Assembly: GCA_021323635.1 (NCBI GenBank)
Contig: JAJPKQ010000008.1
Coordinates: forward strand, 1 to 47,121
Origin: a bacterium
GTDB taxonomy: Bacteria; Actinomycetota; Thermoleophilia; Solirubrobacterales; Solirubrobacteraceae
Direction: 5' to 3'
DNA: 47,121 nt
Both the position numbers and the translations under genes were made by a program. Shown in pieces: positions 5,363 to 10,722 of this stretch. Position 1 is the first letter of the stretch; every line of letters starts with the position of its first letter. The notes under the pieces are model-generated. The model did not search any database. It was not told where the DNA came from and saw only the letters and a program-made list of their open reading frames with translations.

Positions 5363-5484
5363 GCGCTCCCTGACAGGCGCCGGCGCATCGCTGCGGTCAG
5401 GCCGCACCGGGCTGCCCAAGCCTGAGCGTCCAATGGATGCTGCAGCGCTCAACTTCTCCCATACAGCTGCCGAGATGGGGGGCG

Positions 5485-6366
5485 ATGTCGAGCATCTCCC
5501 TATCGCGCATCCCCCGGCGCTTCCAGGCTCTACTTGCGGTCGTCCTGCTGCTGGCGGTGCTCTGGGTTGCCGTCGGGCACAAGCTGGTCGGCTCCTCAAG
5601 CTCGGAATCCGGGTCGGAAACGATCGCTGCGCGCCATCCCGCTCCAACACGCGTCCACCCGGCCACGCTGAGGGCTCACAGCGCCGCCGGCGCGCGCGCA
5701 GGCGCGCTGCGGGCGCCCGCTGCAAAGGCTGGCGCCCGACGCAACCCGTTTTCCCCGGCGCACACGAGCGCACAGCGCGCGCCGTCCAGTCCGAGCGTTG
5801 CGAGCCCGGCACACCCGGCGGGCGCAAAGGCACCGATGCGGACGCTGCCCACGGCCAGGACAAGCGTACCGACCGCTCGTGCGCGCAGCCATGCACCGGC
5901 TGCCACGCGCAGCGGCGCAGCGGCCCTCTCACCCACGAAGGCCCGCAGCCTGGCGCCCACACGTTCGCGCGTGCAGAGCGCCCGGCCTGGCGCCGCGCCG
6001 GGGCGCCCCGCCCTAACGCTGCCAAGCGCAAGCAGGGCGGTCGAAGAAGAGCTTGGCGCCGGCAAGACGGTGCTGCTGCTGTTCTGGACCCCGCAGGCTG
6101 TGACCGACCAGTTCGTCAAGGGCGAGGTGCAGGCGGCGGCACGCTCGCTGGGCAGCTCCGTTGTCGTCCACTATGCGACCGCCGCACAGGTTGCCGAATA
6201 CGGCACCTTCACCGAGCACGTGCTGATCACCGAAACGCCGACGCTGCTGGTTATCGCTCCACCCAAGGAGATCATGGCCCTGGCGGGCTTCACCGAAGCG
6301 CAAACGATCAAGCGCACGGTCGCCGCGGCGCGCAGCGCAGCCAGCGCCAAGCCGAGCGGTCGCTAG
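5485..6366 (+). CDS. Membrane-anchored thioredoxin-fold-like protein without CxxC
   Basis: About 293 residues from ATG 5485; an in-frame ATG at 5437 is the alternative and would add 16 residues. Near the N-terminus lies one hydrophobic helix (LLAVVLLLAVLWVAV), giving a signal anchor. Next comes ~150 residues of Ala/Ser/Pro/Arg-rich low complexity, probably an extended extracytoplasmic linker. The last ~100 residues look like a thioredoxin fold: VLLLFWTP, a helix, HYATAAQVAEYG, then TPTLLVIAP with the cis-Pro-like TPT. The active-site cysteines are missing (WTPQAVTD at that place), so a thiol-disulfide role is unlikely. It may be a binding or scaffold protein. Function unknown. Confidence 0.72.
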   Translation: MSSISLSRIPRRFQALLAVVLLLAVLWVAVGHKLVGSSSSESGSETIAARHPAPTRVHPATLRAHSAAGARAGALRAPAAKAGARRNPFSPAHTSAQRAPSSPSVASPAHPAGAKAPMRTLPTARTSVPTARARSHAPAATRSGAAALSPTKARSLAPTRSRVQSARPGAAPGRPALTLPSASRAVEEELGAGKTVLLLFWTPQAVTDQFVKGEVQAAARSLGSSVVVHYATAAQVAEYGTFTEHVLITETPTLLVIAPPKEIMALAGFTEAQTIKRTVAAARSAASAKPSGR

Positions 6367-6409: not shown

Positions 6410-7981
6410 ATGCCCGATCGGGAGTCCCTTCATGCGCACATGGCCGCGCCGCACGGCTGCGACCAGCTGCCCGCCGGCGCACCGAGCGGCAGCGCGGGTG
6501 GCGCTCCCTGCGGCGATCTGATCACGATCGCGCTAGACCTTGCCGATCGCCGGGCGGGCGCCGGCGCGCGCATCGCGCAGATCGGCTTCAGGGCGCACGG
6601 GTGCGGCGCGCTGACGGCCGCCGGCAGCGCCGTCGTCGCGCTGGCGCGCAGCGCCTCGCTGCAGCAGGCGGCGCGCATCGATGCGGCAGCGATCGCCGCG
6701 GAGCTCGGTGGCCTGAGCGCGGCCAAGGCGCACGTGGCAGCTCTTGCGGAGGAGGCTCTGCACCGTGCGCTCGGAGCTGCCGCGGTGGCGCTTGCGGCGC
6801 CCCCGGCCAACGAGCGGCGCGTGCTCGTGGCGATGAGCGGCGGCGTCGACAGCGCTGTTGCGGCGCTGCTGCTCAAGCGCAGGGGCTTTGAGGTGCTGGC
6901 GGTGACGCTTGAGCTCTGGCGCGATGCGGAGGGGGAGGGCGAGCGCTCCTGCTGCTCGCCGCAGGCGGTGCGCAGCGCGCGCGCGCTTGCTCACGGGCTT
7001 GACATCCCGCACCTCACGCTCGACCTGCGCGCGCGCTTTCGCGCAGGCGTGGTGGAGGGCTGGATTGACGCGCACAGGCGCGGCCTGACGCCCAACCCGT
7101 GCATCGCCTGCAACGGCGGCGTGCGCATCGCCGCGATGCTCGAGCTGGCGGAGCGGCTGGGCGCTTGCGCGCTTGCCACCGGCCACTACGCCCGCCTTGC
7201 GCCCGCGCCCGACCTCGCCGGTGCAGGCAGGCGCCGGCCGCCAGCGCTGCTGCGCCGCGCGCGCGACACCGGCAAGGATCAGAGCTACGCCCTCGCGGCG
7301 CTGCCGCCCGCGCTGATCGCGCGACTGCGTCTGCCGCTCGGTGGGCTGCGCAAGGAGGAGGTGCGGCGGATCGCGGCCGAGGCGGGCCTCGCGGTGGCAG
7401 ATCGACCCGACTCTCAGGATCTCTGCTTCCTGGCGGGAACGAGCCGCGAGCGTGTGCTCGAGCGCCACGGTGGCCTGCGCGCCCGGCCCGGCCCGATCGT
7501 CGATCAGGCGGGCAGGCGCCTGGGCACCCACCGCGGCGTTGCCTCTTACACCATCGGGCAGCGGCGTGGGCTTGGCATAGGCGGGAGCGCGGCGCAGTTC
7601 GTCATCGCCCTCGACGCGGATGCCAACAAGCTGGTCGTCGGTCCCCGCGAGGCGTTGCTTGCCGATCTGGTCGCGCTCGAGGATCTGCAGCTGCACACCG
7701 AGCCGGCGCTGATCGACGCTGTGCGCATCCGCTCGCGCGGCGGCCTTCTTGCCGGGCGCATGGTCGACCACTGCGGCCCTCGCGCCGCTGCGGCCTTCGT
7801 GCTGGCTCAGCCCGCCGAGCGCACCGCGCCGGGACAGCTCGCGGTCCTCTACGCCGGCGACCTGGTCGCGGGCCACGGCGTCATCGTGCGCATGAGCCGC
7901 CGCCGCAGCGTCGCTGCGACGTCGAGCCGCGCGGGCGCCGACCGCCGGCGCGCGCCGGCACTGCAGAGCGCGCGCGCCTAA
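6410..7981 (+). CDS. mnmA: IscU-like domain fused to tRNA 2-thiouridylase MnmA
   Basis: A 523-residue fusion. Residues ~15-125 resemble an IscU/NifU-N iron-sulfur scaffold: GAPCGD (C34), HGCGALT (C65) and KAHVAALAEEAL, where IscU has its third cysteine (HCS) but this protein has Val109. Residues ~136-510 are MnmA, which makes 2-thiouridine at wobble U34 of tRNA Glu/Gln/Lys: PP-loop SGGVDS (143-148), CCS (181-183), TPNPCIACN with C231 and C234, and DSQDLCFL with C339. E. coli MnmA has Asp where C231 stands. C231/C234/C339 would make an all-cysteine site, suited to the [4Fe-4S] form of MnmA that has been reported. The start could also be ATG 6440. No cysteine desulfurase gene is adjacent. Confidence 0.93.
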   Translation: MPDRESLHAHMAAPHGCDQLPAGAPSGSAGGAPCGDLITIALDLADRRAGAGARIAQIGFRAHGCGALTAAGSAVVALARSASLQQAARIDAAAIAAELGGLSAAKAHVAALAEEALHRALGAAAVALAAPPANERRVLVAMSGGVDSAVAALLLKRRGFEVLAVTLELWRDAEGEGERSCCSPQAVRSARALAHGLDIPHLTLDLRARFRAGVVEGWIDAHRRGLTPNPCIACNGGVRIAAMLELAERLGACALATGHYARLAPAPDLAGAGRRRPPALLRRARDTGKDQSYALAALPPALIARLRLPLGGLRKEEVRRIAAEAGLAVADRPDSQDLCFLAGTSRERVLERHGGLRARPGPIVDQAGRRLGTHRGVASYTIGQRRGLGIGGSAAQFVIALDADANKLVVGPREALLADLVALEDLQLHTEPALIDAVRIRSRGGLLAGRMVDHCGPRAAAAFVLAQPAERTAPGQLAVLYAGDLVAGHGVIVRMSRRRSVAATSSRAGADRRRAPALQSARA

Positions 7982-7992
7982 GATCAACAGCG

Positions 7993-10722
7993 ATGAGCAA
8001 GCAGGCAGAGGAAGCAGCGCGCCCCCTCGGCGTGCGAGCGATGAGCTCCGATCAGATCCGCGAGAGCTTCCTCTCGTTCTTTGAGGAGCGCGGGCACCTG
8101 CGCATCCCCTCGGCCTCGCTGATCCCCTCCGAGCACGATCCATCGGCGCTGCTGACGGTCGCCGGCATGCACCCGCTCAAGCCCTACTTTCTCGGCCGCG
8201 AGCAGCCGCCGGCGCCGCGGCTGACCGACTGCCAGAAGTGCTTTCGCACGGTGGACATCGAGCACGTCGGGCGCACCAGCCGTCACCTCACCTTCTTTGA
8301 GATGCTCGGCAACTTCTCGATCGGGGACTACTTCAAGCGCGAGGCGATCGCCTTTGCGCTCGAGCTCTCCCAAGAGGTCTTCGGCTTTCCCACCGCTGCG
8401 ATCTGGGTGACCGTCTTTGCGGGCGATGAGGAGCTTGGCCTGGGCCCCGACGAGGAGGCGATCGCAATCTGGGAAGAGGCGGGCATACCAGCCGAGCGCA
8501 TCGTGCGCTGCGGGCGCAGCGAGAACTTCTGGCAGGCCGGACCGACCGGGCCCTGCGGGCCCTGCTCGGAGCTCTACCTGGACCGCGGCGCCGAGCACGG
8601 CTCGCCCGATGACCTCCCCGGGGGCGAGAACGAGCGCTTCCTGGAGTACTGGAACCTCGTCTTCATGCAGTACGACCAGAGCCGGCCGAACGTGCTCGCG
8701 GAGCTGCCGGCGCGCAACATCGACACCGGCCTTGGCCTCAACCGCCTGGCGGCGATCTGCCAGGGCAAGCGCTCGGTGTTTGAAACCGATCAGTTCTGGC
8801 CGCTGATCGAGCTGGGCTGCGAGCTCGCGGGCGTGCGCTACGGCGATGCCGAGAGCAGCGACCGCGCGCTGCGCATCCTCGCCGACCACTCCCGCGCGAT
8901 GACCTTCCTGGTCGCCGACGGGGTTGTCCCCTCCAACGAGGAGCGCGGCTACGTGCTGCGGCGGGTGATGCGCAGGGCGATCCACCAGGGGCGGCTGCTC
9001 GAGCTGGCGCCGGGCTTCCTGCTCGCATTCGCAGGTCGCGTGCGCGAGCTGATGGCCGGCGCCTACCCCGAGCTTGAGTCAGAGCGCGAGGCGATCGAGC
9101 TGTGGCTCGCCGCCGAGGAGGAGTCCTTCTCGCGGACCCTCGACCAGGGGCTCGCAAGGCTGGCGGAGCTGATCGAGCGCGCGCGCGAGCAGGGATCGGA
9201 GCGCATCCCCGCGGAGGAGGCCTTCCGGCTGCATGACACCCACGGCTTCCCGATCGAGCTGACGCGCGAACTGCTCGAGGGCGAGGGCATCGCGGTGGCC
9301 CAGGAGCGCTTCGCGGAGCTGATGGAGGCTCAGCGCACACGTGCACGGGCGGCCGCGGGCGGCCGCGCGGCTGCGGCGGCGGGCGAGAGCCTGCGCGAGC
9401 GCGCTCGCGCGCTCGCCGCCGCTGCGGGCGCCCCCAGCGAGTTCGTTGGCTACGAGCGCGAGCAGGCACAGACGGTGATCGTCGCCGCCGCTGAGGCCGA
9501 CGGCGCAGATCATCGCCGCTGGCTCCTGAAGCTTGCCGAGTCGCCCTTCTACCCGGTCGGCGGCGGCCAGGTCGCCGATCGGGGCGTGATCGAGTGCCTG
9601 GAGGGCGACTGCCAGGCGGTTGTCGAGGACGTCCTGCGCCTGGGCGACGATCAGGTGATCGCGGTCAGCGTAGAGCGCGGCACGATCTCGCCAGGGGAGC
9701 GCGTGCGGGCGCAGGTGGCGCGCAGCGCGCGCTTTGCGACCGAATGCAACCACACAGCCACCCATCTGCTCCACGCGGCGCTGCGCGGCAAGCTCGGAGG
9801 CCATGTGCGCCAGGCGGGCTCCTATGTCGGCCCGGACAAGCTGCGCTTCGACTTCAGCCACATGAGCGCCCTCAGCGAGGCGCAGCGGCAGGCGATCGAG
9901 GAGCAGGTGAACGCGTGGATCGCGGCCGATGAGCCCGTCAGCGCGATCACCACCACCCTTGCGGAGGCGCAGCGCCTGGGCGCGATGGCGCTCTTTGGCG
10001 AGAAGTACGGCGAGGTTGTGCGGATGGTCCAGATCGGCGACGGCAGCTACTCGCGCGAGCTCTGCGGCGGCACGCACGTGCGCTACACCGGCGAGATCGG
10101 CGCCTTCGTGATCATCTCCGAGTCCTCCTCGGCGGCCAACGTCCGACGCATCGAGGCGCTCACAGGGCCTGCCGCGGTCGCCCATCTGCGCCGCCGCTCC
10201 GCCACGCTGCAGGAGGCTGCAACGCTACTGCGCTGCAAACCTGAGGCGGTGCCCGCGGCGGTCCGCAAGCTGCGCGAGGAGCATGACCGCGCCCGCAGGG
10301 AGCGCCGCACGGAGACGGGGACGCCCGACGGCGTAGCGCTTGACATCGCTGCGCTGCGCGCCGGCGCGAAGAGCATCGGCTCAGATGGCGTGCGCTTTCT
10401 GGCAGCCGTGGTGCCCGCCGGGGCAAGCGCAAAAGCGCTGATCGGGCCGGCCGAGCAGCTGCGCTCCGAGCTTGGAGAGGCGGTCGTGATCCTCGCCAGC
10501 ACGCTCGAGGGCAACCCGCAGCTGGTGGTGAGCGTCGCGCCGGCGCTGGCAGATCGCGGCGTCAGCGCCAGCGACCTTGTGCGAGGCGCGGCCGAGGTCA
10601 TCGGCGGGCGTGGCGGCGGGCGCCCGACGCTCGCCCAGGGCGGTGGGGGGGAGCCGGAGCGTCTGGGAGCGGCGCTTGCCGGCGCGCAGGCGCAGGTCGA
10701 GGCGACCCTTGCCGCGCAATGA
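7993..10722 (+). CDS. alaS: Alanine--tRNA ligase
   Basis: About 909 residues from ATG 7993; ATG 8041 (MSSDQIRESFLSFFEERGH) is an equally plausible start and closer to the family's usual beginning. Domains in order: class II catalytic core (SASLIPSEHDPSALLTVAGM, CFRTVDIEHVGRTSRHLTFF), helical tRNA-binding region, editing domain with ECNHTATHLLHAAL and CGGTHVRYTGEIG (zinc ligands), and a C-Ala/DHHA1 domain ending in RGGGRPTLAQGGG. The enzyme charges tRNA-Ala and clears mischarged Ser and Gly. The stop overlaps ruvX by four bases. The order alaS-ruvX-mltG-aroE is well conserved in actinobacteria and Firmicutes. Confidence 0.97.
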   Translation: MSKQAEEAARPLGVRAMSSDQIRESFLSFFEERGHLRIPSASLIPSEHDPSALLTVAGMHPLKPYFLGREQPPAPRLTDCQKCFRTVDIEHVGRTSRHLTFFEMLGNFSIGDYFKREAIAFALELSQEVFGFPTAAIWVTVFAGDEELGLGPDEEAIAIWEEAGIPAERIVRCGRSENFWQAGPTGPCGPCSELYLDRGAEHGSPDDLPGGENERFLEYWNLVFMQYDQSRPNVLAELPARNIDTGLGLNRLAAICQGKRSVFETDQFWPLIELGCELAGVRYGDAESSDRALRILADHSRAMTFLVADGVVPSNEERGYVLRRVMRRAIHQGRLLELAPGFLLAFAGRVRELMAGAYPELESEREAIELWLAAEEESFSRTLDQGLARLAELIERAREQGSERIPAEEAFRLHDTHGFPIELTRELLEGEGIAVAQERFAELMEAQRTRARAAAGGRAAAAAGESLRERARALAAAAGAPSEFVGYEREQAQTVIVAAAEADGADHRRWLLKLAESPFYPVGGGQVADRGVIECLEGDCQAVVEDVLRLGDDQVIAVSVERGTISPGERVRAQVARSARFATECNHTATHLLHAALRGKLGGHVRQAGSYVGPDKLRFDFSHMSALSEAQRQAIEEQVNAWIAADEPVSAITTTLAEAQRLGAMALFGEKYGEVVRMVQIGDGSYSRELCGGTHVRYTGEIGAFVIISESSSAANVRRIEALTGPAAVAHLRRRSATLQEAATLLRCKPEAVPAAVRKLREEHDRARRERRTETGTPDGVALDIAALRAGAKSIGSDGVRFLAAVVPAGASAKALIGPAEQLRSELGEAVVILASTLEGNPQLVVSVAPALADRGVSASDLVRGAAEVIGGRGGGRPTLAQGGGGEPERLGAALAGAQAQVEATLAAQ

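What the first reader, a model, noticed from the sequence alone, without database searches (positions are those of the whole stretch)
6410..7981. IscU-like scaffold fused to a cluster-type MnmA, with the scaffold's third cysteine lost
The N-terminal ~110 residues carry two of the three IscU cysteines (C34 in APCGD, C65 in GCG), but Val109 replaces the third. The MnmA half has C231, C234 and C339; C231 replaces the Asp found in E. coli. I infer that the fused domain delivers, or helps hold, an iron-sulfur cluster for the thiolation site. With only two Cys (plus Asp36) it may transfer rather than build clusters. This would be a one-chain sulfur-relay device for tRNA U34.
Basis: partly seen in the sequence, partly recalled or inferred. 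Interest (0 to 1): 0.75.

Follow-up and report, generated by a model that had tools for sequence, protein, structure and literature searches.

The report
Iron-sulfur scaffold fused to tRNA thiolase
In a large group of bacteria the enzyme that puts sulfur on the tRNA wobble base carries a built-in copy of an iron-sulfur scaffold protein that has kept its metal-binding pocket but lost the residue that normally receives sulfur, so it probably works as a tethered sulfur-delivery or docking part and not as a cluster builder.

Summary
ORF 6410-7981 (+) encodes an NifU_N/IscU domain (residues 18-121, PF01592, E 6e-15) joined to a complete MnmA (137-492). C34, D36, C65, V109, C231, C234 and C339 are as stated.

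The fusion is not peculiar to this genome. It is widespread in the window's class (Thermoleophilia, judged from named relatives) and occurs in other Actinomycetota lineages. It arose at least twice, apparently from an iscS-nifU-mnmA gene row that survives unfused in relatives.

Unfused NifU beside mnmA always has all five IscU site residues (C, D, C, H, C). Among 129 fused proteins none keeps both the His and the third Cys: with C-D-C intact, 71 keep only the His and 24 only the Cys. The window keeps C34-D36-C65-H108, the resting metal-ligand set of ISCU2, and lacks the residue that accepts persulfide there. C34 is the most conserved (125/129).

Most likely this is a tethered, metal-bound, SufU-like sulfur-transfer or docking domain serving MnmA, fed here by SufS (no stand-alone IscS was found). 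It is probably not a cluster scaffold. The mechanism is inferred; residue distances could not be measured.

The parts
6410..7981 (+). NifU_N~MnmA fusion gene, 523 aa, ATG start
   Evidence: start codon position nearly invariant in A1
6461..6772 (+). NifU_N / IscU-like domain, residues 18-121
   Evidence: PF01592 E 6.1e-15; IscU fold, pLDDT mostly over 93
6509..6511 (+). Cys34 of the CGD motif (IscU first Cys; SufU persulfide-acceptor position)
   Evidence: alignment; kept in 125 of 129 fused proteins
6515..6517 (+). Asp36, metal ligand position
   Evidence: kept in 96 of 129
6602..6604 (+). Cys65 of the GCG motif (IscU second Cys)
   Evidence: kept in 108 of 129
6731..6733 (+). His108, equivalent to ISCU2 His137, retained fourth ligand
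   Evidence: invariant in families f1-f5 and f23
6734..6736 (+). Val109 in place of the third Cys (ISCU2 Cys138, persulfide acceptor)
   Evidence: Ala or Gly in relatives
6812..7894 (+). MnmA domains (PP-loop HUP, PRC barrel, C-terminal barrel), residues 135-495
   Evidence: PF03054, PF20259, PF20258, NF001138 over cut-off; Z 34 to solved MnmA
6950..6955 (+). Cys181-Cys182, the CC of CC-CxxC-C type MnmA
   Evidence: invariant in A1
7100..7111 (+). Cys231-x-x-Cys234, thiolation-site CxxC
   Evidence: invariant in A1
7424..7426 (+). Cys339, catalytic / third cluster Cys of MnmA
   Evidence: invariant in A1
7898..7978 (+). C-terminal tail, residues 497-523, last ten residues predicted disordered
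   Evidence: pLDDT under 50 at 514-523
7963..10722 (+). alaS downstream, part of the conserved gene row
   Evidence: PF01411 E 4e-166; gene row

Best explanation
The protein is an old fusion of a NifU/IscU-type protein with a CC-CxxC-C type MnmA, produced when nifU and mnmA of an iscS-nifU-mnmA gene row were joined (shown by gene order and tree). In the window's order the fused domain has kept the four-residue metal site Cys34-Asp36-Cys65-His108 and lost the adjacent Cys that takes persulfide in ISCU2 (shown by sequence). I infer that it is no longer a cluster-building scaffold. It is a tethered, metal-bound (probably Zn2+) sulfur-transfer and docking domain: it docks the cysteine desulfurase, which in this genome can only be SufS; it takes or shields the persulfide at Cys34, as SufU does at the equivalent Cys40/41 with a zinc ligand swap; and it hands the sulfur to the MnmA thiolation site (C234/C339, with or without a cluster on C231/C234/C339) in the same chain.
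For: Gene row iscS-nifU-mnmA unfused in f6, f29, f51, f67 and a Peptococcaceae genome; iscS directly before the fusion in f10, f11 and f23. Fusion arose at least twice: one origin rejected, AU p 0.002. Unfused NifU: C,D,C,H,C in every one of 30+ loci. Fused: both His and third Cys in 0 of 129; intact C-D-C with His only 71, Cys only 24. C-D-C-H is the ligand set of free ISCU2 and the lost residue is its persulfide acceptor; C138S abolishes persulfidation (PMC11021402). C34 is kept in 125 of 129, even in f9 where the rest of the site is gone, and is the SufU acceptor position (PMC10216065). Own genome: SufS and SufU are present, and no stand-alone IscS or TusE was found. Its SufS has a His 19 residues before the catalytic Cys (HPHD...AGHHC), the spacing of Mtb His354/Cys373. 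N-domain and MnmA half are about equally conserved within the genus, so the domain is under selection. Model pLDDT 92.5, pTM 0.90.
Against: No biochemistry exists for any such fusion. The domain scores far below the SufU model (20 bits, cut-off 92.5) and lacks SufU's third Cys. In ISCU2 the first Cys is dispensable for persulfidation and is not the acceptor. f23 keeps iscS next door and yet has lost the third Cys, so that loss is not explained simply by loss of IscS. The site choice (His or Cys) rests on few independent events (3 changes on the tree). Distance from C34 to the MnmA site unknown. The genome also has a separate SufU that could serve MnmA.
Confidence: 0.45

Rival explanations
1. 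One reading: the domain holds or delivers an iron-sulfur cluster to C231/C234/C339 of the same chain.
For: CxxC-C type MnmA is a [4Fe-4S] enzyme in Thermus (PMC8584467); the C-D-C-H set can hold Fe2+ in ISCU2; a three-Cys form survives in f10, f11, f55 and part of f8.
Against: The persulfide acceptor is missing in the window and all of f1-f5 and f23; f9 has lost D36, C65 and both later ligands yet keeps the domain; SufBCD-type parts encoded next to SufS can make clusters without it.
Confidence: 0.2
2. Docking or structural domain only: the metal site is a static Zn site that keeps the domain folded, and the domain serves to bind the desulfurase or the tRNA; no sulfur passes through its Cys.
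For: Four ligands are ideal for a static Zn site; one of the five IscU ligands is always lost; IscU-type domains dock desulfurases in solved complexes that top the fold matches (4eb5, 3lvl); B. subtilis YrvO gives sulfur directly to MnmA (PMC11784392).
Against: f9 keeps C34 alone after losing the other ligands, which a purely structural Zn site does not explain.
Confidence: 0.22
3. Vestige: the domain is a passenger left by gene fusion and is being lost.
For: f7 has only a Cys-free remnant of about 80 residues, some f8 have none, f9 has lost most ligands, f16 drifts.
Against: In f1-f5 four ligands are invariant over dozens of genera, and the N-domain is conserved like the MnmA half within the genus.
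Confidence: 0.1

Closest known systems
IscU / clostridial-type NifU (PF01592, TIGR03419)
   Same: Fold, CGD and GCG motifs, Asp, His; descent from the iscS-nifU-mnmA gene row
   Different: Fused to MnmA; third Cys (persulfide acceptor) lost; scores below the equivalog cut-offs
SufU (TIGR01994)
   Same: Same superfamily; four-ligand metal site; first Cys is the SufS persulfide acceptor in SufU and is the best conserved residue here; SufS is the desulfurase in this genome
   Different: Not in the SufU subfamily (20 bits, cut-off 92.5); fourth ligand is His instead of Cys; tethered to an enzyme
CC-CxxC-C type MnmA (Thermus thermophilus; Shigi 2020 as cited in PMC11784392)
   Same: PP-loop, CC, CxxC and third Cys; full MnmA domains over cut-off
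   Different: Carries the N-terminal NifU_N domain
E. coli MnmA with the TusA-TusBCD-TusE relay
   Same: Needs sulfur brought from a desulfurase to the thiolation site
   Different: Uses separate carrier proteins; TusE (PF04358) not found in this genome

Membership tests
NifU_N / IscU domain family (PF01592) | Profile score over the gathering cut-off | tested here: met
   55.9 bits, cut-off 22
NifU_N / IscU domain family (PF01592) | IscU fold | tested here: met
   Z 18-21, rmsd about 2 A over 120-136 residues to IscU chains
IscU Fe-S scaffold (functional class) | Three conserved cysteines, the third being the persulfide acceptor | tested here: not met
   V109 at the third position
IscU Fe-S scaffold (functional class) | First Cys, Asp, second Cys and His of the assembly site | tested here: met
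   C34, D36, C65, H108
IscU Fe-S scaffold (functional class) | Equivalog scores TIGR01999 / TIGR03419 | tested here: not met
   46.8 and 59.3 bits, cut-offs 192.4 and 187.9
IscU Fe-S scaffold (functional class) | Assembles and transfers a cluster | not testable with these tools
   needs spectroscopy and transfer assays
SufU | TIGR01994 score | tested here: not met
   20.4 bits, cut-off 92.5
SufU | Ligand set Cys-Asp-Cys-Cys | tested here: not met
   fourth position is His108, third Cys absent; own-genome SufU has C-D-C-C
SufU | Persulfide taken from SufS on the first Cys | not testable with these tools
   needs an assay; C34 is present
MnmA (tRNA 2-thiouridine synthase) | Equivalog score | tested here: met
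   NF001138 319 bits, cut-off 284; TIGR00420 266 bits, cut-off 237
CC-CxxC-C type MnmA | CC, CxxC and further Cys | tested here: met
   C181-C182, C231/C234, C339, invariant in A1
CC-CxxC-C type MnmA | [4Fe-4S] cluster required for activity | not testable with these tools
   not measured for any fused protein

The most novel reading that the evidence does not exclude
An iron-sulfur scaffold has repeatedly been turned into a tethered, metal-gated sulfur carrier for tRNA thiolation by joining it to MnmA and dropping one of its two neighbouring fifth-site ligands (His or Cys, never keeping both), so that a five-residue cluster-assembly site becomes a four-ligand sulfur-transfer site.
Probability: 0.35. 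Interest if true: 0.75.

Novelty: new variant of a known kind. Interest (0 to 1): 0.55.

Why it matters
How MnmA gets its sulfur outside gammaproteobacteria, and whether its cluster is needed, is openly disputed (PMC11784392). This fusion ties the last carrier to the enzyme in one chain, so transfer can be tested with one purified protein plus SufS. The family also gives a natural mutation series of the IscU site: five-residue unfused, C-D-C-C, C-D-C-H, C only, and none. That bears on which residues do cluster building and which do sulfur transfer. I found no paper describing the fusion in the open library.

Tried and rejected
Third-Cys loss follows loss of IscS: suggested by f1-f4 (30 of 31 genomes without a stand-alone group-I IscS-like enzyme) against f10 and f11 (iscS adjacent, Cys kept), but broken by f23 (iscS adjacent, Cys lost) and part of f8; not claimed. 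A unique oddity of one genome: rejected. Chance or wrong-frame extension: rejected (profile, fold, conservation). One origin of all fusions: rejected by AU test; one origin within the window's group excluding f6 not rejected (p 0.48). AU test on the full 108-row tree did not finish. Distances between cysteines: no coordinates are given by the tools. The Shigi 2020 paper is not in the library; cited through reviews.

Full report
Check of the observation. The ORF at 6410-7981 (+) is 523 aa. Residues 18-121 match Pfam NifU_N (E 6.1e-15) and residues 137-492 match MnmA over its curated cut-off. Alignment with solved IscU/NifU chains places C34 on the CGD cysteine, D36 on its Asp, C65 on the GCG cysteine, H108 on the site His and V109 on the third cysteine. 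Missed were His108 and the C181-C182 pair. A structure prediction on 59 window and relative sequences gave mean pLDDT 92.5 and pTM 0.90. Its N-domain matches IscU chains at Z about 18-21 and its C-terminal part matches solved MnmA at Z 34 (Foldseek).

Distribution. A scan of 299 genomes of the window's class found MnmA in 281. In most families the match runs through the N-terminal domain. Named relatives (L001, L002, about 50% identical) are Solirubrobacterales, so the class is taken to be Thermoleophilia. Groups of the genome set are given only as codes f1, f2 and so on. A scan of 396 genomes of the phylum found full-length fusions also outside the class, in f23, f16, f55 and f73, and none among the families f30 and f35 that matched only from about position 125 on in the listed rows (rows beyond the list were not seen). 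f29 and f51 also gave full-length matches there, but reading the DNA shows separate nifU and mnmA frames.

Origin. In f6 of the same class, in f29, f51 and f67, and in a Peptococcaceae genome (L032), iscS, nifU and mnmA lie in a row as separate genes, with alaS further downstream in f6 and L032. In f10, f11 and f23 iscS lies directly before the fused gene. In the window and its relatives aspS and alaS flank the fused gene without iscS. The fusion is therefore best read as nifU joined to mnmA in this gene row. A tree of the MnmA half places the fused lineages in two places; one origin is rejected (AU p 0.002, reduced set, simple model), while one origin within the window's group, excluding f6, is not rejected (p 0.48).

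The site. In 129 distinct fused proteins C34 is kept in 125, C65 in 108, D36 in 96, H108 in 74 and the third Cys in 25. No fused protein has both His and third Cys. With C-D-C intact, 71 have His only and 24 Cys only. Unfused NifU next to mnmA has both in every case read (some of these loci cover the same genome twice). Families f1-f5 and f23 are C-D-C-H. f10, f11, f55 and part of f8 are C-D-C-C. Another part of f8 loses D36 together with His and Cys. f9 keeps only C34. f7 has a Cys-free remnant of about 80 residues. The His/Cys choice needs only 3 changes on the tree, so it rests on few events.

Meaning of the site. In free ISCU2 the metal is held by Cys69, Asp71, Cys95 and His137, the counterparts of C34, D36, C65 and H108. 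Cys138, the counterpart of V109, receives the persulfide, and its replacement abolishes this (PMC11021402). The window has thus kept the resting metal site and lost the acceptor. In SufU the acceptor is instead the first Cys (Cys40/41, the C34 position), freed when a SufS His takes its place on zinc (PMC10216065).

Sulfur supply in this genome (97.5% complete). SufS (536 bits, cut-off 475) and SufU (97 bits, cut-off 92.5) lie together at G000:C31:41943-43477. SufS has a His 19 residues before the catalytic Cys, the same spacing as Mtb His354 and Cys373 (sequence; numbers from PMC10216065). No stand-alone group-I IscS was found: across 31 genomes of f1-f4 only G288 has one, and G202 has one fused to a formate dehydrogenase-like part. 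TusE is not found. f5 has a divergent group-I enzyme. So in the window's genome MnmA must be supplied through SufS or something not recognised here (inference).

Conservation. Within the genus the N-domain is about as conserved as the MnmA half, with third codon positions changing most. It is not a decaying passenger in this lineage, though it is in f7, f9 and part of f8.

Mechanism. Shown: fusion, descent, retained C-D-C-H site, lost acceptor, near-invariant C34, SufS as the only recognised desulfurase. Inferred: docking to SufS, persulfide on C34, transfer to C234/C339, Zn as the metal. A docking-only role is a close rival.

MnmA half. C231 instead of Asp is the ordinary CxxC-C type; such MnmA from Thermus is a [4Fe-4S] enzyme, while the need for a cluster in E. 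coli MnmA is disputed (PMC8584467, PMC11784392). It is not itself a surprise.

Verdict. The fusion appears undescribed in the open literature searched, which does not cover subscription journals. The new point is the repeated reduction of a five-residue assembly site to a four-ligand site in fused forms.

Noticed in passing
L287:3-3902 (-), genome G202; also open frames of 1164-1214 aa in G066, G012 and G048: A NifS-like cysteine desulfurase in one open frame with a formate dehydrogenase alpha-like part (G202: residues 175-874 and 918-1284); frames of similar length carry the IscS match in three f9 genomes. This may be another sulfur-donor fusion.
   Followed up: partly
window 5437-6366 (+): Protein of 309 aa upstream of the fusion, with an Ala/Pro-rich middle and no Pfam match, conserved at the same place in several relatives of the family. 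Its C-terminal part looks like a thioredoxin fold without CxxC (by eye only).
   Followed up: partly
L285, L289, L291 (family f5): Divergent group-I NifS-like desulfurase, about 294 bits to TIGR03402 against a cut-off of 530, in genomes whose fused MnmA has lost the third Cys.
   Followed up: partly
L245-L254 (family f23): In these fused proteins the second-Cys motif is GCAAC or similar, giving an extra Cys three residues after C65, next to an adjacent iscS gene.
   Followed up: no
L153-L171 (family f7): MnmA with a Cys-free N-terminal remnant of about 80 residues that still aligns to the end of the NifU_N domain: a domain caught in loss.
   Followed up: partly
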